Of a DNA stretch of 64,000 nucleotides, positions 309 to 60,300 are shown one piece after another. Each line of letters begins with the position of its first letter. The stretch's first letter is position 1. The position numbers and the translations under genes are program-made. This DNA is from Arenicola marina (taxonomy: Eukaryota > Annelida > Polychaeta > Arenicolidae), in the NCBI GenBank assembly GCA_964019135.1, contig OZ025249.1:2852001-2916000 (forward strand). The letters run 5' to 3'. The notes beneath the pieces are model-generated. The model worked only from the letters and a program-made list of their open reading frames with translations, ran no database searches and was not told the DNA's origin.

Positions 309-3300
309 GGCTCGGACAGCGTGGTGGACTGCATCTACACCGGAGATCCCGACCAGCCATTCCTGATCCAGATGTCATACAACACCGACAACAACGGCTT
401 CAAGGGGAACGAGGTGTTATCACAGGTGAGCTGCATCGAATCAAATCCGAATCAAAATGTGTTACTAGTGACCGATATACCTTGCCTTGTTATATTCATT
501 CATAAGGCGATGTTCTAGGCTTGGCCCGGCTAGTCATAAAATAGCTTGCGAGGGATGTACGCAGATCTGTTGGTAATAATCATTCTCTCTTTCTTAATTA
601 TCAGCGAGCATGTGTTTTAGAGAAGGTTTAGCAGGTGCGGATCTAGCATTATTAAAAACGGGGAGGCCGCTTTGGTTAGGTTCGAAAATCGAGTAACTGA
701 GTGAATGAAAAAGGACAAAAAAATGGGGGTTCAGTACAAAAAGTGGTGTGGTGGTCCGAACCCACACCCGGGGGCTGGGTAAACGAGCGTATCGTCAGTT
801 AACTTAGCTTTAACTGTTTTATTCAAATTGTTATACTGTTACTTAACCAAAGCCAAGGACAGGTCACAAATTCACTAAATGTTGCATAGTTACATGTTAC
901 ATACGAAAAACGAAAAACGGTCTTTGTTACCAATTTTCGCTTTCTATGTCGCCAAACGAAAAATGAAAAACGATTGTTGGGTTTGTTTTTCATTTTTCTT
1001 CTGATCATTTTAAAAACGAAAACTATTGGACGGTATATGCAAGGACCTTTTCATTGTTCTGATGATGTTAAAAAGGTGGAAAAGAATGGCCGGTTTTTAC
1101 ACGGACCTGTCAATCGACATCATGTTACAGCATCAGCTAGGCTTGGTGACGTCACAAAGTCAAGGTTACTATGCCGACGGTAGAATCACGTGCCACTTCA
1201 CGCGGCTAATCAGCGTCTCAAACGACAGTCTCCGTGACGTCAGCCAGGTGTACGACCTTGACCAGGACATGTTTCTGCTCCAGGCTAAAGGCGTTGCCTT
1301 TGGAGGTAAATTATAAGATTATTCAAAGCTTTACTAATATTATTATTCCAGCATTTCAACAAGTAAGTCCACCAACAATGATAGTTATCACAAGAGGTAT
1401 GAGAGTGGTTAGAATGAGTTTATCATCAGAGTTATTTCGTGCATCGAGGGTTTGACGACTTGTTGTGACTGAGTCTGTCTGTATCCATGGCGACAGGAGT
1501 GAAAACCCAGCACACAGACCAGGTGGTGGCGCCCGCGGCGGTGAACACGGCTTCGGAGGACTACAGCACGCTGACAGGGGTGGCCCAGTTCCCCCTGGTC
1601 AAGGCCCATGGTGAGTGACACCCACGGAGGTGGGGAGTCAGTTCCCCCTGGTCAAGGCCCATGGTAAGTGACACCCACATAGGAGGGGGTTAGTTCCCTC
1701 TGGTCAAGGCCCATGGTAAGTGCCACCAACAGAGGAGGGGGGTCAGTTAGTTCCCCCTGGTCAAGGCCCATGGTGAGTGCCACCCACAGAGGAGGGGGTA
1801 AGTTTCCCCTGGTCAAGGCCCATGGTAAGTGACACCCACAGAGGAGGGGGTCAGTTAGTTCCCCTGGTCAAGGTCCATGGTAAGTGACACCCACAGAGGA
1901 GGGGGTAAGTTCCTCCTGGTCAAGACCCATAGTGAGTGCCACCCTCGGAGGAGGGGGTCAGTTAGTTCCCCTGGTCAAGGCCCATGGTAAGTGAAACCCA
2001 CAGAGGAGGGGGTCAGTTCCCCCTGGCCAAGGCCCATGGTGAGTGACACCCACGGAGGAGGGGGTCAGTTAGCTCCTCCTGGTCAAGGCCCATGATGAGT
2101 GCCACCCACGGAGGAGGGGATCAGTTCCCCCTGGTCAAGGCCCATGGTGAGTGCCACCCACAGAGGAGGGGGTCAGTTAGTTTCCCCTGGTCAAGGCCCA
2201 TGGTGAGTGCCACCCACGGAGGAGGGGGTCAGTTAGTTCCCCTGGTCAAGGCCCATGGTGAGTGCCACCCACAGAGGAGGGGGTCAGTTAGTTTCCCCTG
2301 GTCAAGGCCCATGGTGAGTGCCACCCACGGAGGAGGGGGTCAGTTAGTTCCCCTGGTCAAGGCCCATGGTGAGTGCCACCCACGGAGGAGGGGGGTAAGT
2401 TCCCCCTGGTCAAGGCCCATGGTGAGTGCCACCCACGGAGGAGGGGGTCAGTTAGTTCCCCTCTCTCACCTATATCCTGATGATCTTTCCATCCGACTCT
2501 CTTACCTGTATCTTGATGATCTTTCCATTTGGCTCTCTCACCTGTATCTTGATGATCTTTCCATTTGGCTCTCTCACCTGTATCCTGATGATCTTTCCAT
2601 TTGGCTCTCTCATCTGTATCCTGATGATCCTGATGATCCTTTTATCCGGATTGTATCTTTCCTTCCGGCTCTCCAACAGGTATCCTGATGATCTTCTCGT
2701 GGATGGTGTGTGTCAGTTTCGCGGTCCTGCTGCCTCGCTACTTCAAGTCTGTCTGGCCGGACAAGACTTGCTGCGGGAAAGCCATCTGGTTCCAGGTAAG
2801 ACTTCTGTCATGGTCACCGTCAGCTTGCATCCGGGTCTCGCCATTGTGGCCTAGACACTGCCTGTCCCTTGACCACATGGCTGGTGGCGGCTAGTCAGTG
2901 TTCCTCTAGCTGGCGGCTGGTCCGTGTCCCTGTTAGCGGGGCAGCCGCCGTGGTCGACAGGGTAGCGCATTAGACCTTGTGATTCTTTGGCTCCTAAGAC
3001 AGTAATCCATGTCTGTTACAGATGCACCAGCCACTGATGATCATCGCCCTGCTGCTGACATCTGCTGGCTTCATCTGCATCTTTGTGGAGGCTGGAGGCT
3101 ACCTCAGGGTAAGCCATGCTGCTCTATCACCGCACACTCCAAACCCGACAATTAGATATTATGAATGTGTTTGGTGCAACGCAATGCCTCACAATCTTTC
3201 CGTTCTCACGTGCCCCTGTTGACGGTGGATGTGTTGTCTTTCCGTTCTCACGTGCCCCTGTTGACGGTGGTTGTGTTGTCTTTCCGTTCTCACGTGCTTC

Positions 3301-5793
3301 TGTTGACGGTGGTTGTGTTGTCTTTCCGTTCTCACGTGCCCCTGTTGACGGTGGTTGTGTTGTCTTTCCGTTCTCACGTGCCCCTGCTGACGATGGCTGT
3401 GCTGTCTTTCAGTTCGCCTCGGGTCCCGCTGTGGCTCACCCAGCGATGGGTATCCTAACGCTGTGTCTGGTATACGCCAACGTAAGTACCAACTGTAATG
3501 TACCAAATGTAATGTACCAACTGTAATGTACCAACTGTAATGTACCAACTGTAATGTACCAACTGTAATGTACCAACTGTAATTACCAACTGTAATGTAC
3601 CAACTGTAATGTACCAACTGTAATATACCAATTGTAATGTACTAACTGTAATGTACCAACTGTAATGTACCAACTGTAATGTACCAACTGTAATTACCAA
3701 CTGTAATGTACCAACTGTAATTACCAACTGTCATGTACCAATTGTAATGTACTAACTGTAATGTACCAATTGTAATATACCAACCGTAATGTACCAACTG
3801 TAATGTACCAACTGTAATTTATCAGCTCTAATGATACTGCTGTAATGTACCAGCTGTAATGTACGAGCTGTAAGGTACCAGCTGTAATGTACCAGTTATA
3901 ATGTACCAGCTGTAATGTCGCAGCTGCAATCGACCAATTGTAATCAGCTGCAATATGTGAAGTTCCAATATACTAATTAAGCTGCAATGTACCAGTGCAT
4001 ATAGCTGCAATGTACCAGTGCATATAGCTGCAATGTACCAGTGCATGTATCTGCAATGTACCAGTGCATATAGCTGCAATGTGCCAGTGCATACAGCTGC
4101 AATGTACCAGTGCATATAGCTGCAATGTACCAGTGCATATAGCTACAATGTACCAGTGCATATAGCTACAATGTGCCAGTGCATACAGCTACAATGTACC
4201 AGTGCATACAGCTGCAATGTACCAGTGCATATAGCTGCAATGTGCCAACGCTACAGTGTAGCCTAGGTGTACGTCCCGCTGTGTCCGCAATGTCCGCACA
4301 TCGTAAGGCTGTAAAGAGTGATCGGTCCTGATAACTGTTTGAAAGGCGTTCTTTATACACAGCCTCTGATCGCCGCCGGTAGATGTCACCCCGATCACCC
4401 AAAGAGACAAATATTCAACTGGTTGCACTTCTCTGTTGGAACCTTAGGTCACGCGTGCGGAGGTCAGTGTTTCATTCAATCCGCTTGACCCCGAAACTGT
4501 GACTGGTTCAAGCCTCTATAACTGTCTGATGGCATTAGTTTATACGAAATAAACAATTCTACTTTGCCAAAGTTATCAAATGCACCTTGTGATCGCAGTT
4601 TGAATGTATCTATATGCCGGATTTCATGTAAATATGTCAGTTGAAACCCAACCGGTATGTCCTTGGTTGCAGTGACCACCATGTTCCTGGGTGTCTACAT
4701 GGTCAAGGCCAACATGCCCTTCTGGGCCAAGTGGATCATGGTGGCCTTCATCTGTTGGCACGCTGTCATTGAGATGACCTTGGCCATCCTGACACACACC
4801 GAACACAAACAAAAGGAACCGCAAAGGAAACCGACACGTGAGTCATTGTTATCCAGGAAGTTTCTGTTTCCTAAAGAAATTAAAATCTCTTCATGATTTT
4901 AATTCACGATTTTCGACACGATTATCTACGCTTACTATATAATTACTCAGGAACATGGCTATATGGTAACAATAATGATTGTTCGTGTCTGTGTTGGTTA
5001 TATTTGCTGACGAACCATCATTGGGTCTATAAAACGATGTTACAATAAACGCATGATTAGGGCTTTGTCAGAACGTCGTATGTGTTCAAATTTGACGTTC
5101 ACAGTGAACGAATTATTGTGTCGTCTTCCCGTAGTTAAGACGACGCCTGGTAACCCTCATTTACCGTTTTACTAGCTCTTTCTGCGGTCATGGTGCACGT
5201 CAGACCCAGCCAAGTGAACTTCGCTTCGATGGCAGAAATCATGGATGCAGCGGACGGCACCAGAGAAGGGATTAACGAGACACAGGAGGTAGAGAAAGTC
5301 CCCGTAAGTATGCGGCACGTATGCGGTTTCTGTCGAGTCATTTAAATCCGGTTTCGGTGACGTCATATATATCCGGTTCGGTGACGTCATATATATCCGG
5401 TTCGGTGACGTAATGTACATCCGGTTCCGGTGGCGTCATATATGTCAGGTTTCGGTGACGTCATACATGTCCAGTTTCGGTGACGTCATGTATATCAGGT
5501 TCCGCCGGCCCCATGTAGATCCGGTTTCGGTGACGTCATATATATTCGGTGCTGGTGATCCATGGCGGTCGTTTTTCTGAGCCAGTTATGATGTACCAAA
5601 CTGCATCATATTAAATTATAAATATGAGTCAACGTACGCGTTTAGGTAGAACTAGAGCACAGACACAGTTAGACACGATCTGTGTAATTGTTTTCAGCAC
5701 GCTGCCAGCAAGACGGCGATTCTATGCCTTCACGCATGCGTCATCTTGGGCTTGGCGATATCACTCTTCGTGCCGCTCGGCCGTGGATACTAA
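309..5793 (+). CDS. FRRS1: Ferric-chelate reductase 1-like protein (DOMON + cytochrome b561), last ten exons
   Basis: FRRS1-type proteins are membrane oxidoreductases with reeler, DOMON and cytochrome b561 domains, thought to reduce ferric iron. Exons seen: 309-425, 1131-1305, 1497-1610, 2680-2795, 3022-3108, 3413-3481, 4363-4462, 4673-4837, 5176-5303 and 5698-5793. All have AG/GT borders and agreeing phases, giving 388 codons plus TAA. The first three exons carry the second half of a DOMON domain (YYADGRITCHFTR, then DLDQDMFLLQAKG). The next exons carry the b561 core. Four histidines sit where this family binds two haems: KAHG, QMHQPLM, VAHPAMG and FNWLHFSVG. The segment ILMIFSWMVCVSFAVLL and later stretches are membrane helices, and the last exon adds a further helix ending FVPLGRGY. 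Reeler and signal peptide exons would lie left of the window. Several introns are filled with tandem arrays. The family call is firm; orthology to vertebrate FRRS1 rather than a paralogue is inferred. Confidence 0.9.
426..1130 (+). other. Intron of FRRS1-like gene with a possible degenerate MITE
   Basis: The intron runs from donor gtgagc to acceptor tgttacag. Near 633-790 a 'gcggatctagc' end and a C-rich partner resemble the small inverted-repeat elements at 7236 and 30493, but the match is weak. Around 900-1020 there is a run of degenerate 'cgaaaaacgaaaaac' motifs. Nothing else is seen. Confidence 0.4.
1611..2460 (+). repeat. Minisatellite of about 54 bp made of copies of the exon 1497-1610 donor junction
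   Basis: Fifteen intronic units follow the authentic exon end. Each repeats the last exon bases (ggtcaaggcccatg) followed by gtgagt or gtaagt and then a G-rich stretch. Unit length varies from about 50 to 56 bp. Two units vary at the donor or just before it (catagtgagt, catgatgagt). The array therefore presents about fourteen decoy 5' splice sites nearly identical to the real one. Confidence 0.9.
2461..2679 (+). repeat. 36-bp minisatellite resembling the acceptor junction of exon 2680
   Basis: About five units carry tgtatcctgatgatctt after a ctctctcacc tract. The authentic junction reads ctctccaacag/GTATCCTGATGATCTT, so the units look like copies of intron end plus exon start. The units lack the AG, so they are not themselves good acceptors. 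Confidence 0.8.
3193..3411 (+). repeat. 42-bp minisatellite resembling the acceptor junction of exon 3413
   Basis: Five units of about 42 bp fill most of the intron 3109-3412. Each has tgtctttccgttc followed by a C-rich stretch. The true acceptor region is tgtctttcag/TTCGCC, preceded by the same 'tgacgatggctgtgc' text that appears in the units with slight changes. Confidence 0.75.
3482..3950 (+). repeat. 14-bp array starting at the donor of exon 3413-3481
   Basis: The unit is 'gtaatgtaccaact', about 30 copies, grading into a variant with cagctgtaatgtac. It starts directly at the donor, where GCCAAC/gtaagtacc resembles one unit, so the array may have grown from the junction. That origin is less certain than for the longer units because the unit is short and AT-rich. 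Confidence 0.8.
3978..4250 (+). repeat. 23-bp array in FRRS1-like intron
   Basis: About twelve units of 'gcatatagctgcaatgtacc' plus agt, continuous in character with the preceding 14-bp array. It ends about 110 bp before the acceptor of exon 4363. Confidence 0.85.
5340..5550 (+). repeat. 25-bp array with TGACGTCA-like sites in FRRS1-like intron
   Basis: About eight degenerate units of 'tccggtttcggtgacgtcat' plus atata. Most contain gacgtcat, a CRE-like half or full palindrome. It begins some 35 bp after the donor of exon 5176-5303 and does not copy exon sequence. Confidence 0.8.
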
Positions 5794-8070: not shown

Positions 8071-8094
8071 CGCGGAAAATATTGGATGGACGTG

Positions 8095-12810: not shown

Positions 12811-12814
12811 TTAA

Positions 12815-13880: not shown

Positions 13881-13904
13881 CAGTTAAGATTAGGCTATAG
13901 TAAT

Positions 13905-23571: not shown

Positions 23572-24845
23572 TAGTCTGAGCGGTTTTCGGCATTTAGTTT
23601 ATTTATGTTAATTTTGTGCGGGGTTTCGCGGGCTTCCGGTGCGCCAGATTCCGGTGGTTCTCAGAGCATCACTTGCTGCTGAGGATCCACAGAGAACACA
23701 CGTACCTTAAGATTTAGTCATCCGGAAACATCTTTTTACCCGCTCAGACCACTCGGCCACAACTCCCGGTTCTCTTCTGACCCGAAATAAAGTAATTCAG
23801 TGCCACTTTGCTGGGTTGTGTGAGTGCGTACAGAAAACAGCCAGAATAACACCCCCTCCACCCCGTAACATTTTGGCGCAGTCGGCAGGATCATTCAGCA
23901 GCAAGTCACGGTGTGGAGGGTGAGAAGAAACCGGGAGTTACAAGGACAGCACCATGCTCACCCTGGAGGAAATGGGGGCGCAGCTGGAGCAGCTGAAGGA
24001 GAGCCATGAACAGGCGCAGGCGGCCATGGCTACCGCCGAGGCTGCTAGGGGGCGGGAGCAGCCCCTCTACATCCCGCGTGAGCGGAAGCTCGCCAAGTTT
24101 GGCGGGTACCGTGACGGCGGACAGCCGATTGAGGACTTCCGCGACGAGGTCAGTCATGTCGTCCGCACACGCCACCTCACGGATGCGGACGCTGTGGACT
24201 TCGTGTTGGCCCACTTGGAGGGTCCGGCCCGACAGGAGGTACTTCTGCAGCCGCCACCGAGAACGCTGCCAGGCGTGATGAACACGCTGACCTCGGTGTT
24301 CGGGGAGGCGCGGTCAGTGGCGCAGCTGCTGCACTGCGTCTATGACCGTCGCCAGAGGCCCGGGGAGACCCTGCGGGAGTACTCCTACGAACTGTCAACC
24401 CTGGTCAACAAGGTGAAGAGCCGGGACGCTAGGGCGCTTGCCAGCGCAGATGTCACGCTCCGCGACCAGTTTGTTGAGGGGGTGGCGAACCCGCAGCTGC
24501 GGCGGTACCTAAAGCGCGTGGTGCGGGAACGGGCCGAGGTTACCTTCCTCGACCTAAGGGAGGACGCTGTCGCATGGAACATGGAAGACCCGGAGTGTCC
24601 CGCCGTGTCTCAGAGGGCGGAGTGCAACGTGCATGAGCGCCGGACCACAACCAGGGAAGACACTTTCTCCAACCCGACGGACTTGACGGAGGTACTGGTG
24701 CTCATGCGGGCTCAACAGCAGGCGTTGCTGGAACTGTCGCACAGAGTCCAGCAGATCGCTTTGGCCCAAACGGTTCACCCGCCAGCGGCCATGTCTGCGT
24801 ACCCGCCTGCATCTATGGGCTCCCACCCGCCAGCGGCCATGCAGG
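23572..24845 (+). mobile_element. LTR retroelement fossil: LTR, primer-binding site, partial gag
   Basis: A putative LTR of about 299 bp starts TGTTGC and ends GTAACA (23572-23870), with AATAAA inside. Three bases on, tggcgcagtcggcagg (23874) is a typical primer-binding site of Ty3/gypsy-like elements. A gag frame opens at 23954 and shows the usual retrotransposon-gag pattern (KFGGYRDGG, IEDFRDEV, LEGPARQEVL). The element is incomplete: no protease, reverse transcriptase, integrase or second LTR is in the window, and a minisatellite takes over at 24846. The gag frame that remains is open, so it is probably not very old. Confidence 0.8.
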
Positions 24846-43415: not shown

Positions 43416-43439
43416 TGTTTCAGCGTTCCACGGGGAGCC

Positions 43440-45371
43440 ATGGCGGACATCGAACACCTGGTCACGTGCTCGATCTGCCTGCATCACTTTGACGTGGGGG
43501 GTCGGGCGCCCAAGTGCTTGCCCTGTACACACACTGTGTGTCTTCGCTGCCTGGCGACCATGTTGGATCAGAACCGAGGGCGGGACGTCGGCGTGGCGTG
43601 TCCGGAGTGTCGCCGCGTGCATCAGATCCGGAACGGGGCGGCCGAGAACCTTCCCAACAACGTCATGGTACTGCGGCTCATGACCGCTTGGAGCGCTGCC
43701 TCCGCCCCCGACATTAAGCCCCATCTGGCGGACATTGTTGAAGATCTCAAGGCCATGAGCCAGGAACTGGAAGGTCAGAGAGAACGGAATGACCTTGACC
43801 TTAGAGCGATGATGTCATCGATTGAGGTGGCGAAGGGAACTGTTGAGAGGCGCGTGGCAAGGTTAACGGCCGAGCTGAGCGCGAGACGAGGCGAGCTGCT
43901 GGAGCTGATCGAGGATGCGGCGGAGGAGCCGAGTCGGCGACTCGCCGCCTCAACCTCGGCGCTCGAGAAATCTCGAGAGTTATTGGTGAGGTGCGAGCGC
44001 CTCCTAGCGGAGGGTGGGTGCAGCAGGGACGTGCACGAGGTCGTCCTACGTGAGCAGACTGCGCTGAAGAGGACTTGGTCTCAGCTGTCTGCCGAGGTCG
44101 CTCCAAAGACAGTCACGGTTGACTTCGGTCAGACGCCTTCTCTGAGTAATATCGGGAGTCTCGGCTGCGTGTGGATTGGAGCCAGGACCGAGATTCCTGG
44201 CTCTGGGAATGTGTCGACGCCTGTTACAGAGGACAATCCCAATGACGTCACGCGGGAGGGGATTCCCAACAGTCCCCCGGGAGGCGATATCTCTAGTGAC
44301 CTCTCCTCTCGCGAGGTGTCTCTCACTGTTTCCAGTGGAAGGGACCCACTGGCAGGCGTGGTGCAGAACAGTGACGCGGACACTCACGGTGGTGATACCG
44401 CTCACGGTGGCGCTGATATTGCTCACGGTGGCGCTGACACCGCTGACGGTGGCGCTGATACCGCTGACCGTGGCGCTGATACCACTGACGGTGGCGCTGA
44501 TACCACTGACGGTGGCGCTTCCCTTTCCGGCGGCGGCCAGAGGGACTACTCTGGGCTGACAGAGCCGACGTGGAGCCTGACGCTGTCGGCGGCGGTGACT
44601 GGTCTGGCCGGCTGCCCGGACGGCTTCCTGGCGCTGGCCGGACCCAACAAGCTGAGGACCATGAACCTGGAGAACCAGACCGCCCCGTACTTCACACAGG
44701 GAGACTCCAACAGCCGCGAACTGGAATTCACCCCCAGCGCGCTGGCGTGCTGGGCCAGCGGGGACCTGGCCGTGCTGGAGCTGTCCAGCAAGCCTCCCTG
44801 CGCCCACGTCCTTCCCAGGCACTCTCTCAGCGGCCACCTGTTCACCGTGGAGCCGGACAGCCACAGCTGCCTAGCCGCCGCCGAGCCCGACCTCCTCTAC
44901 GTGACCAGCCCGCTGCCGGGCTCCATGCGGCGAGGGGTCCGCCTCACCGCCTTCGACCGCCAGGGCCGCCGCACCACCTGTCGCGCCCTCTACCTGCCGG
45001 ACTCGGTCGTCACTGACGCCACCGGCCGACAGGAGGCGCCACGCGGCATGGCTGCCATCGGCAACAGGCTGGCCTTGACCTTCAGGGACCACGTGGTCCT
45101 GTTGAGCCAGGAGGGCGCCATGTTGAAGCTGCTACACATGAGGGTTGACCGCCTGGGGGGGCCGTTGCTAGGCGACGGCGGCCTGCGGGGGGTCGCATCC
45201 AGGGGGCGCCACTTACTGGTGTCAGATGACAGCACACAAGCGGTCATAATTGTATCTGAGAGCGGAGACCGGTTACACAGAATAGCGGGCCTTGTCAGCC
45301 CGGGCCTCGTGACGTGGACCTCCAGTGGACGTATAGCCGTCAGCTGTACGTCACAGCTGAAAGTGTTCTGA
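43440..45371 (+). CDS. RING-finger, coiled-coil, propeller-like protein (TRIM/NHL-like E3 ligase candidate)
   Basis: 643 codons from an ATG in a good Kozak context (gagccATGg), 17 bases after a probable acceptor (tgtttcag). A C3HC4 RING is clear: C10, C13, C29, H31, C34, C37, C54 and C57. No B-box is seen. Residues of about 85-230 are rich in E, L and R and should form a coiled coil. Residues of about 316-362 are a 7-residue repeat (GGADTAH/D) encoded by an in-frame 21-bp minisatellite. The rest (about 370-643) has short beta-like stretches such as GFLALAGPNKL and GNRLALTFRDHVVLL, as in NHL-type propellers. RING proteins of this shape are usually ubiquitin ligases; the substrate is unknown. 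GC content is far above the flanks. The TGA lies inside the first unit of the 53-bp array that follows. The true 3' end may therefore differ (see 50221). Confidence 0.82.
   Translation: MADIEHLVTCSICLHHFDVGGRAPKCLPCTHTVCLRCLATMLDQNRGRDVGVACPECRRVHQIRNGAAENLPNNVMVLRLMTAWSAASAPDIKPHLADIVEDLKAMSQELEGQRERNDLDLRAMMSSIEVAKGTVERRVARLTAELSARRGELLELIEDAAEEPSRRLAASTSALEKSRELLVRCERLLAEGGCSRDVHEVVLREQTALKRTWSQLSAEVAPKTVTVDFGQTPSLSNIGSLGCVWIGARTEIPGSGNVSTPVTEDNPNDVTREGIPNSPPGGDISSDLSSREVSLTVSSGRDPLAGVVQNSDADTHGGDTAHGGADIAHGGADTADGGADTADRGADTTDGGADTTDGGASLSGGGQRDYSGLTEPTWSLTLSAAVTGLAGCPDGFLALAGPNKLRTMNLENQTAPYFTQGDSNSRELEFTPSALACWASGDLAVLELSSKPPCAHVLPRHSLSGHLFTVEPDSHSCLAAAEPDLLYVTSPLPGSMRRGVRLTAFDRQGRRTTCRALYLPDSVVTDATGRQEAPRGMAAIGNRLALTFRDHVVLLSQEGAMLKLLHMRVDRLGGPLLGDGGLRGVASRGRHLLVSDDSTQAVIIVSESGDRLHRIAGLVSPGLVTWTSSGRIAVSCTSQLKVF
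44380..44520 (+). repeat. 21-bp coding minisatellite in the RING gene
   Basis: About six units of 'ggtggcgctgataccgctga' plus c encode GGADTAD-type heptads. Variation is mostly in-frame substitution, so the repeat is kept as coding sequence and probably forms a flexible linker. Confidence 0.9.
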
Positions 45372-48300
45372 AGACCGGACACAGACTGGCGTCCAGCTGT
45401 ACGTCACAGCTGAAAGTGTTCGGTAGACCGGACACAGACTGGCGTCCAGCTGTACGTCACAGCTGAAAGTGTTCGGTAGACCGGACACAGACTGGCGTCC
45501 AGCTGTACGTCACAGCTGAAAGGGTTCTGAAGACCGGACACAGACTGGCGTCCAGCTGTACGTCACAGCTGAAAGGGTTCTGAAGACCGGACACAGACTG
45601 GCGTCCAGCTGTACGTCACAGCTGAAAGGGTTCTGAAAACCGGACACAGACTGGCGTCCAGCTGTACGTCACAGCTGAAAGGGTTCTGAAGACCGGACAC
45701 AGGCTGGCGTCCAGCTGTACGTCACAACTGAAAGGGTTCTGAAGACTGGACACAGACTGGCGTCCAGCTGTACGTCACAGCTGAAAGGGTTCTGAAGACC
45801 GGACACAGACTGGCGTCCAGCTGTACGTCACAGCTGAAAGTGTTCGGTAGACCTGACACAGACTGGCGTCCAGCTGTACGTCACAGCTGAAAGGGTTCTG
45901 AAGACCGGACACAGACTGGCGTCCTGTTGTACGTCACAGCTGAAAGGGTTCTGAAGACCGGACACAGACTGGCGTCCAGCTGTACGTCACAGCTGAAAGG
46001 GTTCTGAAGACCGGACACAGACTGGCGTCCAGCTGTACGTCACAACTGAAAGGGTTCTGAAGACTGGACACAGACTGGCGTCCAGCTGTACGTCACAGCT
46101 GAAAGGGTTCTGAAGACCGGACACAGACTGGCGTCCAGCTGTACGTCACAGCTGAAAGGGTTCTGAAGACCGGACACAGACTGGCGTCCTGCTGTACGTC
46201 ACAGCTGAAAGGGTTCTGAAGACTGGACACAGACTGGCGTCCAGCTGTACGTCACAGCTGAAAGGGTTCAGAAGACCGGACACAGACTGGCGTCCAGCTG
46301 TACGTAACAGCTGAAAGTGTTCTGAAGACCGGACACAGACTGGCGTCCTGCTGTACGTCACAGCTGAAAGGGTTCTGAAGACCGGACACAGACTGGCGTC
46401 CAGCTGTACGTCACAGCTGAAAGGGTTCTGAAGACCGGACACATACTGGCGTCCAGCTGTACGTCACAACTGAAAGGGTTCTGTAGCCCGGACACAGACT
46501 GGCGTCCTGCTGTACGTCACAGCTGAAAGTGTTCTGAAGACCGGACACAGACTGGCGTCCAGCTGTACGTCACAACTGAAAGGGTTCTGAAGACCGGACA
46601 CAGACTGGCGTCCAGCTGTACGTCACAGCTGAAAGGGTTCTGAAGACCGGACACAGACTGGCGTCCTGCTGTACGTCACAGCTGAAAGGGTTCTGAAGAC
46701 TGGACACAGACTGGCGTCCAGCTGTACGTCACAGCTGAAAGGGTTCAGAAGACCGGACACAGACTGGCGTCCAGCTGTACGTCACAGCTGAAAGTGTTCT
46801 GAAGACCGGACACAGACTGGCGTCCTGCTGTACGTCACAGCTGAAAGGGTTCTGAAGACCGGACACAGACTGGCGTCCAGCTGTACGTCACAGCTGAAAG
46901 GGTTCTGAAGACCGGACACATACTGGCGTCCAGCTGTACGTCACAACTAAAAGGGTTCTGAAGACCGGACACAGACTGGCGTCCTGTCGTACGTCACAGC
47001 TGAAAGGGTTCTGAAGACCGGACACAGACTGGCGTCCAGCTGTACGTCACAGCTGAAAGGGTTCTGAAGACCGGACACATACTGGCGTCCAGCTGTACGT
47101 CACAACTGAAAGGGTTCTGAAGACCGGACACAGACTGGCGTCCTGTCGTACGTCACAGCTGAAAGGGTTCTGAAGACCGGACACAGACTGGCGTCCAGCT
47201 GTACGTCACAGCTGAAAGTGTTCTGTAGCCCGGACACAGACTGGCGTCCTGCTGTACGTCACAGCTGAAAGTGTTCTGAAGACCGGACACAGACTGGCGT
47301 CCAGCTGTACGTCACAACTGAAAGGGTTCTGAAGACCGGACACAGACTGGCGTCCTGCTGTACGTCACAACTGAAAGGGTTCTGAAGACCGGACACAGAC
47401 TGGCGTCCTGCTGTACGTCACAGCTGAAAGGGTTCTGAAGACCGGACACAGACTGGCGTCCAGCTGTACGTCACAGCTGAAAGTGTTCGGTAGACCGGCC
47501 ACAGACTGGCGTCCAGCTGTACGTCACAGCTGAAAGTGTTCGGTAGACCGGACACAGACTGGCGTCCAGCTGTACGTCACAGCTGAAAGGGTACTGAAGA
47601 CCGGACACAGACTGGCGTCCAGCTGTACGTCACAGCTGAAAGGGTTCTGAAGACCGGACACAGACTGGCGTCCAGCTGTACGTCACAGCTGAAAGTGTTC
47701 GGCAGACCGGACACAGACTGGCGTCCAGCTGTACGTCACAGCTGAAAGTGTTCGGTAGACCGGACACAGACTGGCGTCCAGCTGTACGTCACAGCTGAAA
47801 GGGTTCAGAAGACCGGACACAGACTGGCGTCCAGCTGTACGTCACAGCTGAAAGTGTTCTGAAGACCGGACACAGACTGGCGTCCTGCTGTACGTCACAG
47901 CTGAAAGGGTTCTGAAGACCGGACACAGACTGGCGTCCAGCTGTACGTCACAGCTGAAAGGGTTCTGAAGACCGGACACATACTGGCGTCCAGCTGTACG
48001 TCACAACTGAAAGGGTTCTGAAGACCGGACACAGACTGGCGTCCTGTCGTACGTCACAGCTGAAAGGGTTCTGAAGACCGGACACAGACTGGCGTCCAGC
48101 TGTACGTCACAGCTGAAAGTGTTCTGTAGCCCGGACACAGACTGGCGTCCTGCTGTACGTCACAGCTGAAAGTGTTCTGAAGACCGGACACAGACTGGCG
48201 TCCAGCTGTACGTCACAACTGAAAGGGTTCTGAAGACCGGACACAGACTGGCGTCCTGCTGTACGTCACAACTGAAAGGGTTCTGGAGACCGGACACAGA

Positions 48301-50220
48301 CTGGCGTCCTGCTGTACGTCACAGCTGAAAGTGTTCAGAAGACCGGACACAGACTGGCGTCCAGCTGTACGTCACAGCTGAAAGTGTTCGGTAGACCGGA
48401 CACAGACTGGCGTCCAGCTGTACGTCACAACTGAAAGAGTTCTGAAGACTGGACACAGACTGGCGTCCTGCTGTACGTCACGGCTGAAAGGGTTCTGAAG
48501 ACCGGACACAGACTGGCGTCCAGCTGTACGTCACAGCTGAAAGGGTTCTGAAGACCGGACACAGACTGGCGTCCAGCTGTACGTCACAGCTGAAAGGGTT
48601 CTGAAGACCGGACACAGACTGGCGTCCAGCTGTACGTCACAGCTGAAAGGGTTCTGAAGACCGGACACAGACTGGCGTCCTGCTGTACGTCACAGCTGAA
48701 AGGGTTCTGAAGACTGGACACAGACTGGCGTCCAGCTGTACGTCACAGCTGAAAGGGTTCAGAAGACCGGACACAGACTGGCGTCCAGCTGTACGTCACA
48801 GCTGAAAGTGTTCTGTAGAACGGACACAGACTGGCGTCCTGCTGTACGTCACAGCTGAAAGTGTTCTGAAGACCGGACACAGACTGGCGTCCAGCTGTAC
48901 GTCACAACTGAAAGGGTTCTGAAGACCGGACACAGACTGGCGTCCTCCTGTACGTCACAACTGAAACGGTTCTGAAGACCGGACACAGACTGGCGTCCTG
49001 CTGTACGTCACAGCTGAAGGGGTTCTGAAGACTGGACACAGACTGGTGTCCAGCTGTACGTCACAGCTGAAAGTGTTCGGTAGACCGGACACAGACTGGC
49101 GTCCAGCTGTACGTCACAGCTGAAAGTGTTCTGAAGACCGGACACAGACTGGACTCCTGCTGTACGTCACAGCTGAAAGGGTTCTGAAGACTGGACACAG
49201 ACTGGCGTCCTGCTGTACGTCACAGCTGAAAGTGTTCTGAAGACCGGACACAGACTGGCGTCCTGCTGTACGTCACAGCTGAAAGTGTTCTGTAGACCGG
49301 ACACAGACTGGCGTCCTGCTGTACGTCACAGCTGAAAGTGTTCTGAAGACCGGACAGACTGGCGTCCAGCTGTACGTCACAACTGAAAGGGTTCTGAAGA
49401 CCGGACACAGACTGGCGTCCTGCTGTACGTCACAACTGAAACGGTTCTGAAGACCGGACACAGACTGGCGTCCTGCTGTACGTCACAGCTGAAAGTATTC
49501 TGAAGACCGGACACAGACTGGCGTCCAGCTGTACGTCACAGCTGAAAGTGTTCGGTAGACCGGCCACAGACTGGCGTCCAGCTGTACGTCACAGCTGAAA
49601 GTTTTCGGTAGACCGGACACAGACTGGCGTCCTGTTGTACGTCACAGCTGAAAGGGTTCTGAAGGCCGGACACAGACCGCCGTCCAGCTGTACGTCACAA
49701 CTGAAAGGGTTCTGAAGACTGGACACAGACTGGCGTCCAGCTGTACGTCACAGCTGAAAGGGTTCTGAAGACCGGACACAGACTGGCGTCCAGCTGTACG
49801 TCACAGCTGAAAGGGTTCTGAAGACCGGACACAGACTGGCGTCCAGCTGTACGTCACAGCTGAAAGGGTTCTGAAGACCGGACACAGACTGGCGTCCTGA
49901 TGTACGTCACAGCTGAAAGGGTGCTGAAGACTGGACACAGACTGGCGTCCAGCTGTACGTCACAGCTGAAAGGGTTCAGAAGACCGGACACAGACTGGCG
50001 TCCAGCTGTACGTCACAACTGAAAGGGTTCTGAAGACTGGACACAGACTGGCGTCCAGCTGTACGTCACAGCTGTAAGGGTTCTGAAGACCGGACACAGA
50101 CTGGCGTCCAGCTGTACGTCACAACTGAAAGGGTTCTGAAGACCGGACACAGACTGGCGTCCTGCTGTACGTCACAGCTGAAAGTGTTCTGTAGACCGGG
50201 CACAGACTGGCGTCCTGCAG
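45342..50220. repeat. 53-bp array, about 92 units, starting in the last codons of the RING gene
   Basis: The unit carries 'agctgtacgtcacagctgaa' and 'gaccggacacagactggcgt'. The first unit is the coding end of the RING gene (CTSQLKVF and TGA), so the array grew from the gene's own 3' coding sequence. Variants (ggtagacc, tgtagccc, tcagaaga, cctgct for ccagct) recur in the same order in several blocks, which shows higher-order duplication. The last unit ends 'gcgtcctgcag'. Confidence 0.95.
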
Positions 50221-50304: not shown

Positions 50305-50309
50305 TTTGT

Positions 50310-51341: not shown

Positions 51342-54300
51342 TTAACTGGATGCCACGGAGCCAGACTTCAGGGGTTTGAGAGTGCGTGGTTTGACAGGAC
51401 CGGGCTTACGCCCTCCCGGAGACTGGGTCGAGGACACTGAGCTGGTGCCCTGATTGGCTGGGGCGCCCAAGCCGAATGCCGCTCGCATCAAACCCTGGCC
51501 GGCCTTTTTCTGAAAAAAAAGCTAAATGTATTATTTATAGACAATCATCACTATTCGCTGATGGCCGCAAAGTAGCACTACACTCTTTACTGTGTTTTTG
51601 CTGATGGCCGCACGGTGGCGCTACACCACTCACCGTGTTTTCGCTGATGGCCGCATGGTGGCGTTGCTTCTGCTTGGCGTCAAAATCCAACATGTACTTT
51701 GGGAACAATGTCTTCTCATCGTATGCAACCCGCAAACCTGCAAAACATATCGCGAGCGTAAGTCACTGCCAACACCGCTCAGGCAACAGCGCTAACTCCC
51801 CCTCCAACATCGCCCAGGCAACAGTGCTAACTACCCCTCCAACATCGCCCAGGCAACAGTGCAAACTCCCCCTCCAACACCGTCCAGGCAACAGTGCTAA
51901 CTCCCCCTCCAACATCGCCCAGGCAACAGTGCTAACTCCCCCTCCAACACCGCCCAGGCAACAGTGCTAACTCCCCCTCCAACATCGCCCAGGCAACAGT
52001 GCTAACTCCCCCTCCAACACCGCCCAGGCAACAGTGCTAACTCCCCCTCCGACATCGCCCAGGCAACAGTGCTAACTCCCCCTCTAACATCGCCAAGGCA
52101 ACAGTGCTAACTCCCCCTCCAACACCGCCCAGGTAACAGTGCTAACTCCCCCTCCAACATCGCCCAGGCAACAGTGCTAACTCCCCTTCCAACACCGCCC
52201 AGGCAACAGCGCTAACTCCCCCTCCAACATCGCCCAGGCAACAGTGCTAACACCGCCTCCAACATCGCCCAGGCAACAGTGCTAACACCGCCTCCAACAC
52301 CGCCCAGGCAACAGTGCTAACTCCCTTGCCAACACCGCCCAGCCAACAGTGCTAACTCCCCTTCCAACACCGCCCAGGCAACAGCGCTAACTCCCCCACC
52401 CCCAACATCGCCCAGGCAACAGCGCTAACTCCCCCTCCAACATCGCCCAGGTAACAGTGCTAACACCGCCTCCAACACCGCCCAGGCAACAGTGCTAACA
52501 CCGCCTCCAACACCGCCCAGGCAACAGTGCTAACTCCCCTGCCAACACCGCCCAGGCAACAGCGCTAACTCCCCCTCCAACATCGCCCAGGCAACAGCGC
52601 TAACTCCCCCTCCAACATCGCTCAGGCAACAGTGCTAACTACCCCTCCAACATCGCCCAGGCAACAGTGCAAACTCCCCCTCCAACACCGCCCAGGCAAC
52701 AGTGCTAACTCCCCCTCCAACATCGCCCAGGCAACAGTGCTAACTCCCCCTCCAACACCGCCCAGGCAACAGTGCTAACTCCCCCTCCAACATCGCCCAG
52801 GCAACAGTGCTAACTCCCCCTCCAACACCGCCCAGGCAACAGTGCTAACACCGCCTCCAACATCGCCCAGGCAACAGTGCTAACACCGCCTCCAACACCG
52901 CCCAGGCAACAGTGCTAACTCCCTTGCCAACACCGCCCAGCCAACAGTGCTAACTCCCCTTCCAACACCGCCCAGGCAACAGCGCTAACTCCCCCACCCC
53001 CAACATCGCCCAGGCAACAGCGCTAACTCCCCCTCCAACATCGCCCAGGTAACAGTGCTAACACCGCCTCCAACACCGCCCAGGCAACAGTGCTAACACC
53101 GCCTCCAACACCGCCCAGGCAACAGTGCTAACTCCCCTGCCAACACCGCCCAGGCAACAGCGCTAACTCCCCCTCCAACATCGCCCAGGCAACAGCGCTA
53201 ACTCCCCCTCCAACATCGCTCAGGCAACAGTGCTAACTACCCCTCCAACATCGCCCAGGCAACAGTGCAAACTCCCCCTCCAACACCGCCCAGGCAACAG
53301 TGCTAACTCCCCCTCCAACATCGCCCAGGCAACAGTGCTAACTCCCCCTCCAACACCGCCCAGGCAACAGTGCTAACTCCCCCTCCAACATCGCCCAGGC
53401 AACAGTGCTAACTCCCCCTCCAACACCGCCCAGGCAACAGTGCTAACTCCCCCTCCGACATCGCCCAGGCAACAGTGCTAACTCCCCCTCTAACATCGCC
53501 AAGGCAACAGTGCTAACACCGCCTCCAACACCGCCCAGGCAACAGTGCTAACACCGCCTCCAACACCGCCCAGGCAACAGTGCTAACTCCCCTGCCAACA
53601 CCGCCCAGGCAACAGCGCTAACTCCCCCTCCAACATCGCCCATGCAACAGCGCTAACTCCCCCTCCAACATCGCCCAGGCAACAGTGCTAACTACCCCTC
53701 CAACATCGCCCAGGCAACAGCGCTAACTCCCCCTCCAACATCGCCCAGGCAACAGTGCTAACACCGCCTCCAACATCGCCCAGGCAACAGTGCAAACTCC
53801 CCCTCCAACACCGCCCAGGCAACAGTGCTAACTCCCCCTCCAACATCGCCCAGGCAACAGTGCTAACTCCCCCTCCAACACCGCCCAGGCAACAGTGCTA
53901 ACTCCCCCTCCAACATCGCCCAGACAACAGTGCTAACTCCCCCTCCAACACCGCCCAAGCAACAGTGCTAACTCCCCCTCCGACATCGCCCAGGCAACAG
54001 TGTTAACTCCCCCTCTAACATCGCCAAGGCAACAGTGCTAACTCCCCCTCCAACACCGCCCAGGTAACAGTGCTAACTCCCCCTCCAACATCGCCCAGGC
54101 AACAGTGCTAACTCCCCTTCCAACACCGCCCAGGCAACAGCGCAAACTCCCCCTCCAACATCGCCCAGGCAACAGTGCTAACACCGCCTCCAACATCGCC
54201 CAGGCAACAGTGCTAACACCGCCTCCAACACCGCCCAGGCAACAGTGCTAACTCCCCTGCCAACACCGCCCAGGCAACAGTGCTAACTCCCCTTCCAACA

Positions 54301-57300
54301 CCGCCCAGGCAACAGCGCTAACTCCCCCTCCAACATCGCCCAGGCAACAGCGCTAACTCCCCCTCCAACATCGCCCAGGTAACAGTGCTAACACCGCCTC
54401 CAACACCGCCCAGGCAACAGTGCTAACTCCCCTACCAACACCGCCCAGGCAACAGCGCTAACTCCCCCTCCAACATCGCCCAGGCAACAGTGCTATCACC
54501 GCCTCCAACACCGCCCAGGCAACAGCGCTAACTCCCCTTCCAACACCGCCCGGGCAACAGCGCTAACTCCCCCTCCAACATCGCCCAGGTAACAGTGCTA
54601 ACACCGCCTCCAACACCGCCCAGGCAACAGTGCTAACTCCCCTACCAACACCGCCCAGGCAACAGCGCTAACTCCCCCTCCAACATCGCCCAGGCAACAG
54701 TGCTAACTCCCCCTCCAACACCGCCCAGGCAACAGCGCTAACTCCCCCTCCAACACCGCCCAGGCAACAGCGCTAACTCCCCCTCCAACATCGCCAAGGC
54801 AACAATGCTAACACCGCCTCCAACACCGCCCAGGCAACAGTGCTAACTCCCTTTCCAACATCGCCGAGGCAACAGTGCTAACAGCGCCTCCAATACCGCC
54901 CAGGCAACAACGCTAACTTCCCTTCCAACACTGCCCAGGCAACAGTGCTAACACCCCTTCCAACACCGCCCAGGCAACAGTGCTAACTCTCCCTCCAACA
55001 CCGCCCAGGCAACAGTGCTAACTCCCCTTCCAACATCGCCCAGACAACAGTGCTAACTCCCCTTCCAACACCGCCCAGGCAACAGTGCTAACTCCCCTTC
55101 CAGCATCGCCCAGACAACAGTGCTAACCCCCCTTCCAACACCGCCCAGGCAACAGTGCTAACTCCCCTTCCAACACCGCCCAGGTAACAGTGCTAACACC
55201 GCCTCCAACACCGCCCAGGCAACAGTGCTAACTCCCCCTCCAACACCGCCCAGGCCACAGTGCTAACTTCCCTTCCAACACCGCCCAGGCAACAGTGCTA
55301 ACTCCCCTTCCAACATCGCCTAGGCAACAGTGCTAACACCGCCCCCAACACCGCCCAGGCAACAGTGCTAACACCGCCCAGGCAACAGTGCTAACACCGC
55401 CTCCAACACCGCCCAGGCAACAGTGCTAACACCGCCCAGGCAACAGTGCTAACACCGCCTCCAACACCGCCCAGGCAACAGCGCTAACTTCCCTTCCAAC
55501 ACCTCCCAGGCAACAGTGCTAAGTCCCCTTCCAACATCGCCCAGGCAACAGTGCTAACTCCCCTTCCAACACCGCCCAGACAACAGCGCGGTAACTCACC
55601 CTCGGCTAGTGGGGTAACTCACCCTCGGCCAGCGCGGTAACTCACCCTCGGCCAGGGGGGTAACTCACCCTCGGCCAGCGCGGTAACTCACCCTCGGCCC
55701 GCGCGGTAACTCACCCTCCGCCAGAGGGGTAACTCACCCTCGGCCAGCGGGGTAACTCACCCTCCGCCAGCGCGGTGACCCACCCTAGGCCAGCGGGGTA
55801 ACTTACCCTCCGCCAGCGGCGTAACTCACCCTCGGCCAGCGCGGTAATTCACCCTCGGCCAGCGCGGTAACTCACCCTCGGCCAGCGGCGTAACTCACCC
55901 TCTGCCAGCGGGGTAACTCACCCTCGGCCAGCGTGGTAACCCACCCTCGGCCAGCGGCGTTACTCACCCTAGGCCAGCGGGGTAACTCACCCTCCGCCAG
56001 CGCGGTGACCTACCCTCGGCCAGCGCGGTAACTCACCCTCGGCCAGCGCGGTAACTCACCCTCGGCCAGCGCGGTAACTCACCCTCGGCCAGCGCGGTAA
56101 CTCACCCTCGGCCAGCGCGGTAACTCACCCTCGGCCAGCGAGGTAACTCACCCTCTGCCAGCGGGGTAACCCACCCTCCGCCAGCGCGGTGACCCACCCT
56201 CGGCCAGCGGGGTAACTCACCCTCCGCCAGCGGCGTAACTCACCCTCGGCCAGCGCGGTAACTCACCCTCTGCCAGCGGGGTAACTCACTCTCCGCCAGC
56301 GCGGTGACTCACCCTCCGCCAGCGCGGTGACTCACCCTCGGCCAGCGGGGTAACTCACCCTCCGCCAGCGCGGCGACTCACCCTCGGCCAGCGCGGTAAC
56401 TCACCCTCTGCCAGCGGGGTAACCCACCCTCCGCCAGCGCGGTGACCAACCCTCGGCCAGCGGGTTAACTCACCCTCCGCCAGCGGCGTAACTCACCCTC
56501 GGCCAGCGCGGTAACTCACCCTCTGCCAGCGGGGTAACTCACTCTCCGCCAGCGCGGTGACTCACCCTCCGCCAGCGCGGTGACTCACCCTCGGCCAGCG
56601 GGGTAACTCACCCTCGGCCAGCGGGGTAACTCACTCTCCGCCAGCGCGGTGACTCACCCTCCGCCAGCGCGGTAACTCACCCTCTGCCAGCGGGGTAACC
56701 CACCCTCCGCCAGCGCGGTGACCCACCCTCGGCCAGCGGGGTAACTCACCCTCCGCCAGCGGCGTAACTCACCCTCGGCCAGCGGGGTAACTCACCCTCG
56801 GCCAGCGGGGTAACTCACCCTCGGCCAGCGGGGTAACTCACCTTCCGCCAGCGCAGGGACCCTGGCGCTGGGCTCGGGCTCTGGCGCCTTCTCCGTGAAG
56901 TACTTGTGTGGGTGGAGCATGAAGTCCGGTTTGGTGAGGACCCCGACACTCTGTAGGTCTTTGGTGTCCAGCGCCTGGAGGGAGATAAAAGGGGAAGTGT
57001 CAGCGGTTCGGTGGGGGTGATTGACGGTGAAGGACGGTTCGGTGGGGGTGATTGACGGTGAAGGGCGGTTCGGTGGGGGTGATTGACGGTGAAGGGCGGT
57101 TCGGTGGGGGTGATTGACGGTGAAGGGCGGTTCGGCGGGGGTGACTGACGGTGAAGGACGGTTCGGTGGGGGTGATTGACGGTGAAGGACGGTTCGGTGG
57201 GGGTGATTGACGGTGAAGGGCGGTTCGGTGGGGGTGATTGACGGTGAAGGGCGGTTCGGTGGGGGTGATTGACGGTGAAGGGCGGTTCGGCGGGGGTGAC

Positions 57301-60300
57301 TGACGGTGAAGGACGGTTCGGTGGGGGTGATTGACGGTGAAGGGCGGTTCGGTGGAGGTGAAAGGCGGTTCGGTGGGGGTGCTTGACGGTGAAGGACGGT
57401 TCGGTGGGGGTGATTGACGGTGAAGGGCGGTTCGGTGGGGGTGATTGACGGTGAAGGGCGGTTCGGTGGGGGTGATTGACGGTGAAGGGCGGTTCGGCGG
57501 GGGTGACTGACGGTGAAGGACGGTTCGGTGGGGGTGATTGACGGTGAAAGACGGTTCGGTGGGGGTGATTGACGGTGAAGGGCGGTTCGGCGGGGGTGAT
57601 TGACGGTGAAGGGCGGTTCGGTGGAGGTGAAAGGCGGTTCGGTGGGGGTGATTGACGGTAAAGGACGGTTCGGTGGGGGTGATTGACGGTGAAGGGCGGT
57701 TCGGCGGGGGTGATTGACGGTGAAGGGTGGTTCGGTGGCGGTGATTGACGGTGAAGGGCGGTTCGGCGGGGGTGATTGACGGTGAAGGGCGGTTCGGTGG
57801 GGGTGATTGACGGTGAAGGACGGTTCGGTGGGGGTGATTGACGGTGAAGGGCGGTTCGGTGGGGGTGATTGACGGTGAAGGGCGGTTCGGCGGGGGTGAC
57901 TTACGGTGAAGGACGGTTCGGTGGGGGTGATTGACGGTGAAGGACGGTTCGGTGGGGGTGATTGACGGTGAAGGGCGGTTCGGCGGGGGTGATTGACGGT
58001 GAAGGGCGGTTCGGCGGGGGTGATTGACGGTGAAGGGCGGTTCGGCGGGGGTGATTGACGGCGAAGGGCGGTTCGGTGTGGGTGATTGACGGTGAAGGAC
58101 GGTTCGGTGGGGGTGATTGACGGTGAAGGGCGGTTCGGCGGGGGTGATTGACGGTGCAGGGTGGTTCGGTGGGGGTGATTGACGGTGAAGGGCGGTTCGG
58201 TGGGGGTGATTGACGGTGAAGGGCTGTTCAGCGGGGGTGATTGACGGTGAAGGGCGGTTCGGTGGGGGGATTGGCGGTGAAGGGCGGTGAAGGGCGGTTT
58301 GGTGGGGGTGATTGACGGTGAAGGGCGGTTCAGTGGGGGTGATTGGCGGTAAGAGGCGGTTCGGTGGGGGGGATTGACGGTGAAGGGCGGTTCGGTGGGG
58401 GTGATTTACGGTGAAGGGCGGTTCGGTGGGGGTGATTGACGGTGAAAGGCGGTTTGGTGGGGGTGATTGACGGTGAAGGGCGGTTCGGTGGGGGTGATTG
58501 GCGGTTCGGTGGGGGGATTGACGGTGAAGGGCGGTTCGGTGGGGGTCATTGGCGGTGAGAGGCGTTTCGGTGGGGGTGATTGACGGTGAAGGGTGGTTCG
58601 GTGGGGGGGATTGGCGGTGAGAGGCGGTTCGGTGGGGGGGATTGACGGTGAAGGGCGGTTCGGTGGGGGTGATTGACGGTGAAGGGCGGTTCGGTGGGGG
58701 TGATTGACGGTGAAGGGCGGTTCGGTGGGGGTGATTGACGGTGAAGGGCGGTTCGGTGGGGGGGATTGGCGGTGAGAGGCGGTTCGGTGGGGGTGATTGA
58801 CGGTGAAGGGCGGTTCGGTGGGGGTGATTGACGGTGAAGGGCGGTTCGGTGGGGGTGATTGGCGGTGAGAGGCGGTTCGGTGGGGTGATTGGCGGTGAAG
58901 GGCGGTAAAGGGCGGTTCGGCGGGGGTGATTGACGGTGAAGGGCGGTTCGGCGGGGGTGATTGACGGTGAAGGGCGGTTCGGTGGGGGTGATTGGCGGTG
59001 AGAGGCGGTTCGGTGGGGGTGATTGACGGTGAAGGGCGGTTCGGTGGGGGTGATTGACGGGGAAGGGTCTGATGCCGGGGGGTCACTTACAGCGATATGG
59101 TCTGGTGCCGGGGAGTCATTACGGCGAAGGGTCTGGTGCCGGGGGGTCACTTACGGCGAAGGGTCTGGTGCCGGGGGGTCACTTACGGCAAAGGGCCCGG
59201 CGGGAGGGGCCCCGGTCCGCTCCCAGTGCAGGTAGGGCAGGTCTTCCAGTAGCTGGGGCTGTTTTCTCTCCCTCTTGCGTATCCGCAGTTCCCGGTAATC
59301 CTTTCCTGTGAAGGCACAGGATTGGTGTCAGAAATAGCGCCTCGCACCAAAGTCAGACTTCAGTTTACACCAGGTCTATTGCTATTGCTACATAAAACTC
59401 GTACCCTGGTCAGGTTGCTGTGTTATGCAACAACTCGTACCCAGATCAGATTGCTGTGTGACGTTGTGTTGTGCCAACTCGTACCCAGGTCAGATTGTTG
59501 TGTCATGTTGTGTGATGCTAACTCGTACCCAGATCAGATTGCTGTGTCATGTTGTGTTGTGCCAACTCGTAGCCAGGTCAGATTGCTGTGACATGTTGTG
59601 TTATGCCAACTCGTACCCAGGACAGATTGCTGTGTCATGTTGTGTTATGCCAACTCGTACCCAGGTCAGACTCTTGCCAGACGTTGATTCGATAATTGGC
59701 GGGATCCACAACAGCTTTGTCGTCTGGTTGCCAAGTGACGTCATCCTTCAAGTCAGCCATGTTCAACATTTCTTCCTTTTCATCATTCTGTAAACAAATC
59801 CAGTTCCAAAATCATTCCTAACTAAATCTGTCAATCTTTCTGGACGACATCTATTTTCTAGCAGGCCAGAAGTAGAAAAGCATAAACACGGCCGTGACTG
59901 GTTCGTGATGGCCATCCACAATGCACATACGGGTATTTTTAGTAATGATTCTTCTCGGATTATACGAGAGGCAGAGCGCTAAACATAGAGTCGCGAGAAA
60001 GGCCGAGATTTACAGCACAAGTCTCGCGAGAAGTCGTTGATTTACAGCTCAAGTATCGTGATAAGTAATTGATTTACAGCACACGTCTCCTAAGAGGGCC
60101 GTGATTTACAGCGCAAATCTCGTACATACACTGAATGAGAAGGCAGATCATCAGGGGATACTCATAGGATACACTTAAGGCAGTCTGCTTAAGGGTACAC
60201 ACAGAATACAATTAATGGTACACACAGGATACACTTAATGGTACACACAGGATACACTTAATGTTACACATAGGATACCCGGAAGGCAGTCTGCTTAAGG

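What the first reader, a model, noticed from the sequence alone, without database searches (positions are those of the whole stretch)
1497..59787. Splice-junction-derived minisatellites in two neighbouring host genes
At five donors (1610, 51634, 56842, 59187, 59661) the array unit contains the last 8-14 exon bases plus the GT donor, in tandem behind the true junction. At two acceptors (2680, 3413) the unit resembles intron end plus exon start. A chance mix of unrelated satellites would not match each gene's own junction. It suggests a mechanism that starts tandem growth at exon-intron borders, for example R-loops, intron RNA, or selection for tolerated sites. From memory, border-spanning minisatellites were reported in amphioxus, so the class may be known; seven cases in two genes is notable.
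Basis: partly seen in the sequence, partly recalled or inferred. Interest (0 to 1): 0.9.

Follow-up and report, generated by a model that had tools for sequence, protein, structure and literature searches.

The report
Minisatellites grown from exon-intron borders
Several introns in this animal DNA are filled with tandem repeats that are copies of the intron's own splice border, a kind of repeat already described in amphioxus as "mirages"; this stretch is a dense example, not a new class.

Summary
All five named donors carry arrays whose units contain the gene's own exon end plus GT (9-30 exon bases) and match their own unit best. Acceptor 2680 is clear; at 3413 only the intron end and 3 exon bases are covered. 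Also present: weaker donor cases at 3481 and 24844 (5 exon bases each), a likely one at the right edge, and an array starting in the last 31 coding bases, stop codon included, of a RING-type ORF. Seven of 17 intronic arrays enter an exon at a donor. A junction-blind model expects 2.4 (P 0.003) when arrays are collapsed, because the introns without their arrays are tiny. Copied donors stay intact in five arrays and decay in three; both acceptor arrays lost the AG in every copy. This is the known amphioxus "mirage" class (PMC3087553, PMC3902484). Best reading: ordinary minisatellite seeding, filtered by what leaves the mRNA unchanged. A border-directed start (R-loop, intron RNA) is not supported: GC skew has mixed sign and the stop-codon array needs no splice site. 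No RNA, second haplotype or genome was available; the species is a guess.

The parts
1497..1610 (+). Gene A exon 3 (DOMON/cytochrome-b561-like ferric reductase, name recalled); its last 25 bases are the first unit of the donor array
   Evidence: GT-AG borders and open frame; weak DOMON hit E 0.071, below the family cut-off
1586..2462 (+). Donor mirage at 1610, unit about 52-56 bp, 16 copies; 15 of 16 rows keep GT (the true donor counted)
2461..2629 (+). Acceptor mirage at 2680, 36-mer, 4.7 copies, repeats the exon start; the acceptor AG reads CT in 5 of 5 copies
2680..2795 (+). Gene A exon 4, acceptor at 2680
3195..3415 (+). Array ending on acceptor 3413, 42-mer, 5.3 copies; TCTTTCAG of the acceptor reads TCTTTCCG in 5 of 5 copies; 3 exon bases covered
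3477..3944 (+).
   Evidence: borderline on exon bases alone
24840..25043 (+).
   Evidence: fails on exon bases alone
45341..50215 (+). 53-mer x 92 array that begins inside the last 31 coding bases, stop codon included, of a RING-type ORF (43424-45371)
51554..51663 (-). Donor mirage at 51634 of gene B, 43-mer, 2.6 copies, 30 exon bases
51769..55603 (-). 35-mer x 109 array, probably derived from the 23-mer donor mirage; the column that aligns with the donor T is G in 96% of rows
55584..56853 (-). Donor mirage at 56842 of gene B, 23-mer x 55, 12 exon bases; GT kept in 55 of 56 rows (the other row is exon above the array)
57003..59067 (-). 31-mer continuation of the 59187 donor mirage, 67 complete rows, donor decayed to GTCAAT in most
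59046..59195 (-). Donor mirage at 59187 of gene B, 32-mer x 4.7, 9 exon bases; GT in 5 of 5 rows, 3 of them scoring 4 or more
59419..59670 (-). Donor mirage at 59661 of gene B, 44-mer x 5.7, 10 exon bases; GT in 5 of 6 rows
62674..63997 (-). 48-mer x 27.6 array with a donor-like site (mostly CAG|GTGAGG) in 28 of 28 rows; probably the mirage of a gene B donor beyond the window
   Evidence: exon not in window, so inferred

Best explanation
These are mirages: minisatellites that arose when a short tandem duplication happened to straddle a coding/noncoding border and then expanded by ordinary slippage or unequal exchange on the noncoding side. Shown: the array's outermost unit is the border itself, and in two introns a second unit type farther from the donor resembles a decayed form of the first. 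Inferred: straddling duplications survive because they leave the mRNA unchanged. At a donor, splicing keeps using the first, exon-side GT, so intact copies behind it are harmless. At an acceptor a copied AG lies upstream of the true one and could be used first, so AG-less copies are the ones that survive. At a stop codon everything after the first stop is untranslated. Small introns make straddling likely. No border-directed trigger is needed, but an added preference for donors is not excluded.
For: Own junction is the best match of its unit at 7 of 7 junction-array donors (score 32-60) and 2 of 2 acceptors (38, 29); other pairs reach at most 25. Arrays enter the exon at 7 donors by 5-30 bases. 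Frame test in 6 introns (24844 not tested): only the annotated donor stays open among 30 candidates at 1610, 2 at 59661 and 3 at 59187; at 56842 two of 58 do (0 and +23); at 3481 and 51634 the annotated donor was the only candidate, so nothing is tested there. GT kept, true donor row included, in 15 of 16, 55 of 56, 5 of 6, 5 of 5, 2 of 2 and 7 of 7 rows. AG lost in 5 of 5 and 5 of 5 acceptor copies; AG-free runs of 222 and 255 bases precede these two acceptors, while 14 of the other 15 have 10-76 and one has 168. Distal 31-mer resembles proximal 32-mer (1 of 1000 shuffles as good) and 35-mer resembles 23-mer (5 of 1000). Stop-codon array. Published precedents of the same form.
Against: Under the collapsed-intron null, 7 donor overlaps still exceed the expected 2.4 (P 0.003), so donors may need more than tolerance. 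A published acceptor mirage (BflGb6) is given as an example where many, not all, repeats keep splice signals (PMC3087553), against a general AG rule. AG loss in two arrays is only suggestive: random segments of these lengths lack AG with chance 0.139 and 0.107, about 1.5% together. Donor against acceptor 7:0 gives P 0.016, but 7:1 gives 0.07 and 7:2 0.18, depending on how the two acceptors are counted. By rows, decayed donor copies (3481 array, 31-mer, 35-mer) outnumber intact ones. No RNA, haplotypes or second genome were available.
Confidence: 0.72

Rival explanations
1. A border-directed mechanism (R-loop at the donor, splicing intermediates, or intron RNA used as template) starts or feeds tandem growth at exon-intron borders.
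For: Donor overlaps exceed a junction-blind seed model, 7 against 2.4 expected, P 0.003; none of the 17 arrays enters an exon by 4 or more bases at an acceptor.
Against: Coding-strand GC skew of donor arrays is mixed: A3 +0.12, A6 -0.14, C +0.49, B2 -0.09, B3 -0.66, B4 +0.23 and +0.51, B5 +0.12; a stop-codon array of 92 copies has no splice site; with 8 or more exon bases the excess is 5 against 2.0, P 0.036.
Confidence: 0.15
2. Intron gain: the introns themselves were created by tandem duplication of exon sequence (Rogers-type, or the mirage model of PMC3087553), the arrays being the remains.
For: In two introns of gene B only 28 and 31 bases are outside the arrays; the published mirage model proposes intron gain.
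Against: In 16 introns the intron start does not resemble the next exon start (lowest P 0.14). The intron end resembles the previous exon clearly in one case only, the 124-base intron 51510-51633 where the array itself reaches that far; four others have P 0.02-0.11, uncorrected for 16 tests.
Confidence: 0.06
3. Chance or assembly artefact: unrelated satellites that happen to resemble the junctions, or a misassembly that expanded or collapsed copies.
For: Copy numbers come from one assembly; 59187, 3413 and 24844 fail and 3481 is borderline on exon bases alone.
Against: Random placement of 37 arrays never reached 8 overlaps in 5000 trials; own-junction specificity in 9 of 9 cases; copies differ from one another by point changes, unlike simple assembly stutter.
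Confidence: 0.04

Closest known systems
Mirages of amphioxus globin genes and Adh3 (PMC3087553, abstract and passages seen; the original Adh report, Nucleic Acids Res 2002, was not held and is known only as cited)
   Same: [quoted passage not shown] copies often keep AG/GT signals; regular splicing reported not to be disturbed
   Different: Here two introns carry about 70 and 160 unit copies and three introns have only 28-50 bases outside their arrays; acceptor copies here have no AG, whereas many BflGb6 repeats are said to keep splice signals
Tandem repeats overlapping splice sites of lancelet PGBD5 (PMC3902484, passages and section 16 seen)
   Same: 60-bp and 108-bp repeats that abut 5' splice sites
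   Different: Few copies (2-7), longer units
Internal tandem repeats in human segmental duplications (PMC2812944, passages seen)
   Same: Minisatellite-size repeats, some at exon-intron boundaries
   Different: There they change transcripts and may create introns; here the frame argues that the exon-side donor is used
Intron gain by tandem genomic duplication (PMC4974935, PMC3443670; search listing only)
   Same: Duplication that includes splice signals
   Different: Expected cross-homology of intron ends with exons not found here beyond one short intron

Membership tests
Amphioxus mirages | Tandem units contain exon and adjoining intron bases of the same gene's border | tested here: met
   7 donors with 5-30 exon bases in the array; acceptor 2680 with repeated exon start; acceptor 3413 only 3 exon bases
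Amphioxus mirages | Unit length in the published range (10-72 bp at Adh3, 150-160 bp in globins, as given in PMC3087553) | tested here: met
   14-56 bp
Amphioxus mirages | Normal splicing from the authentic site | tested here: inconclusive
   Of 6 introns tested, 4 had more than one candidate donor: only the annotated one stays open in 3, two stay open in the fourth; no RNA
Amphioxus mirages | Allelic or somatic length variation | not testable with these tools
   No second haplotype or reads; own genome not held
Amphioxus mirages | Host is a cephalochordate | not testable with these tools
   No collection of animal genomes; amphioxus is a guess from memory (minisatellite density, gene content)
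Intron gain by tandem duplication | Intron start resembles next exon start and intron end resembles previous exon end | tested here: not met
   16 introns: no intron-start match; one clear intron-end match, explained by the array itself

The most novel reading that the evidence does not exclude
Mirages obey a splice-polarity rule: arrays at donors may keep dozens of intact decoy donors because the exon-side site wins, while arrays at acceptors are tolerated only once every copy has lost its AG. Such introns would be natural records of which splice site the spliceosome picks among near-identical tandem choices.
Probability: 0.3. Interest if true: 0.55.

Novelty: new member of a known kind. Interest (0 to 1): 0.38.

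Why it matters
Arrays with 15 to 55 near-identical, intact 5' splice sites in a row (1610 and 56842) are a natural test of how the spliceosome chooses one. They also show how minisatellites can grow up to the edge of coding sequence without breaking the reading frame, and how introns of hundreds to thousands of bases may come from a seed of tens. I saw no genome-wide count of mirages in nine searches of an open-licence library; subscription papers are mostly missing from it, so the rate and the donor bias may be known elsewhere.

Tried and rejected
R-loop bias: no consistent GC skew. Intron-gain signature: not found beyond the one short intron. Exon-only similarity fails for 59187, 3413 and 24844 and is borderline for 3481 (P 0.05), so these are weaker cases (there the 24844 donor was set one base too early; repeated at the right base, 137 of 200 shuffles as good). 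In one search the exon start at 1131 also scored above all 200 shuffles in its intron, but another intron scored higher (22 against 20), so it was set aside. In one search the donor column of the 35-mer array was set wrongly by hand, so its printed '0 of 110' is not used; the column that aligns with the donor T is G in 96% of rows and in 85 of 86 rows that fit a fixed pattern. Pfam and PDB searches gave no firm name for gene A or B. Exon borders could not be checked against other animals: no animal genomes are held.

Rows dropped before counts: TRF rows that overlap as alternative periods were merged to 37 arrays. For the 17 intronic arrays (10 of 16 introns) the 31-mer and 32-mer were counted as one and the 35-mer apart; the right-edge 48-mer and the array before the RING-type ORF were left out because their upstream exons are unknown. 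Acceptors 5176, 25142 and 43424 were not in the acceptor table. The donor score matrix is recalled vertebrate-like frequencies, not from any call.
Full report
Observation. I built two gene models from GT-AG borders and frame: gene A on the plus strand (309-5793, probably a DOMON/cytochrome-b561-type ferric reductase, name recalled; DOMON hit only E 0.071 and below its cut-off) and gene B on the minus strand (62215-51342, no Pfam family at E 0.1). After the start of gene A exon 9 was moved to 5176 and donor B2 to 59661; with these borders both genes read open through all joins to a final stop. Both genes may have more exons outside the window.

Junction derivation. For 16 donors and 14 acceptors I scored the junction sequence against 15 intronic units read as circles. 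Seven donors have their own unit as by far the best match (A3 53, A6 32, C 37, B2 52, B3 45, B4 46, B5 60); nine donors have no such unit. Two acceptors do (2680: 38; 3413: 29); twelve do not. The highest score off these pairs is 25. In a stricter test with 24 exon bases only, 1610, 51634, 56842, 59661 and acceptor 2680 exceed all 200 shuffles; 3481 is borderline (0.05); 59187 (0.20), 24844 (0.69) and 3413 (0.75) do not pass. So four donors and one acceptor are firm on exon bases alone; the others rest on the whole border and on the array's edge.

Chance controls. Random placement of 37 merged arrays gives a mean of 0.65 arrays with an edge 4-31 bases inside a coding exon, maximum 5 in 5000; 8 are seen. 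A harder control asks where the founding unit would fall if it landed blindly in an intron whose arrays are collapsed to one unit. Seven of the ten array-bearing introns then measure only 59-157 bases, the other three 187, 188 and 919, and 2.37 donor overlaps of at least 4 exon bases are expected among 17 arrays; 7 are seen, P 0.003. With at least 8 exon bases it is 2.03 against 5, P 0.036. With introns left at full length 0.74 are expected. None of the 17 overlaps an exon by 4 or more bases at an acceptor. The numbers are post hoc, from one window, and treat arrays as independent.

Splice signals in the copies. Donor copies (the true donor row is included): GT in 15 of 16 rows (1610), 55 of 56 (56842, 23-mer; the other row is exon), 5 of 6 (59661), 5 of 5 (59187, 32-mer, 3 scoring 4 or more), 2 of 2 (51634, 1 scoring 4 or more), 7 of 7 (24844), 28 of 28 (right-edge 48-mer). 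At 3481 GT stays in 31 of 35 rows but inserted bases weaken it (2 of 35 score 4 or more); in the 31-mer continuation at 59187 1 of 67 rows scores 4 or more; in the 35-mer the donor T is G in 96% of rows. By rows, decayed copies are the majority; by arrays, five keep strong or unchanged copies. Frame test: if an inner donor were used the frame would break in every case at 1610 (30 candidates), 59661 (2) and 59187 (3); at 56842 the first decoy, 23 bases on, would also stay open (2 of 58); at 3481 and 51634 there was no second candidate, and 24844 was not tested. Acceptor copies: 5 of 5 and 5 of 5 have lost the AG (CT at 2680, CG at 3413), and the true AG is the only AG in 2461-2679 and 3190-3412. 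AG-free runs before these acceptors are 222 and 255 bases; 14 of the other 15 have 10-76 and one has 168. Random 36- and 42-base segments lack AG with chance 0.139 and 0.107, so the joint chance is about 1.5%.

Layers. In the 57003-59195 and 51769-56853 arrays the unit next to the exon and the unit farther away are related (1 and 5 of 1000 shuffles as good), and the farther unit has the weaker donor. This suggests that arrays begin at the border and that derived, donor-less variants expand farther inside; two cases only.

Not splice-specific. In the RING-type ORF ending at 45371 a 53-mer array of 92 copies begins at 45341, inside the last 31 coding bases, and includes the stop codon. The common feature may therefore be a coding/noncoding border, not a splice site; this is one case.

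Literature. PMC3087553 (abstract and passages) describes minisatellite-like duplications of intron-exon boundaries in amphioxus globin genes, says they were named mirages at Adh3, that both borders can be affected, that regular splicing is not disturbed, and reports length and somatic instability. PMC3902484 (passages and section 16) adds PGBD5 and mentions troponin C. The 2002 Adh paper was not held. PMC2812944, PMC2632668 and PMC12783039 were seen as passages; the last two gave nothing on border-spanning arrays in the passages shown, except that amphioxus VCBP3 has partial exon copies with splice sites in introns.

Verdict. A real and dense case of a known class. What this window adds is the control for intron size, the opposite fate of GT and AG in some of the copies, and the stop-codon case, all of which lean to tolerance over a border-directed trigger. 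The species is not known to me; amphioxus is likely from memory only. If the host were not a cephalochordate, the finding would extend the class and deserve more interest.

Noticed in passing
45341-50215: 53-bp array of 92 copies begins within the last 31 coding bases, stop codon included, of a RING-type ORF (43424-45371).
   Followed up: partly
42681-43416: 39-bp array of 19 copies ends just before the probable acceptor (43424) of the RING-type ORF.
   Followed up: no
44393-44519: 21-bp tandem repeat (6 copies) inside the RING-type ORF, a length that keeps the frame.
   Followed up: no
17682-21062 and 30962-32953: Two nearly identical reverse-transcriptase-type ORFs (by eye from the ORF list), so a recently active retroelement is likely.
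   Followed up: no
33434-35254: 13-bp array of 140 copies, open in several frames on both strands.
   Followed up: no
23924-24844: PNMA/Gag-like ORF (PF14893, E 1.2e-6) that appears to be spliced at its 3' end, with its own donor array.
   Followed up: partly
26160-28048: AIG1-type GTPase ORFs (PF04548, E 3.3e-21 for the ORF at 26160-26747; the second ORF, 27320-28048, was not scanned).
   Followed up: no
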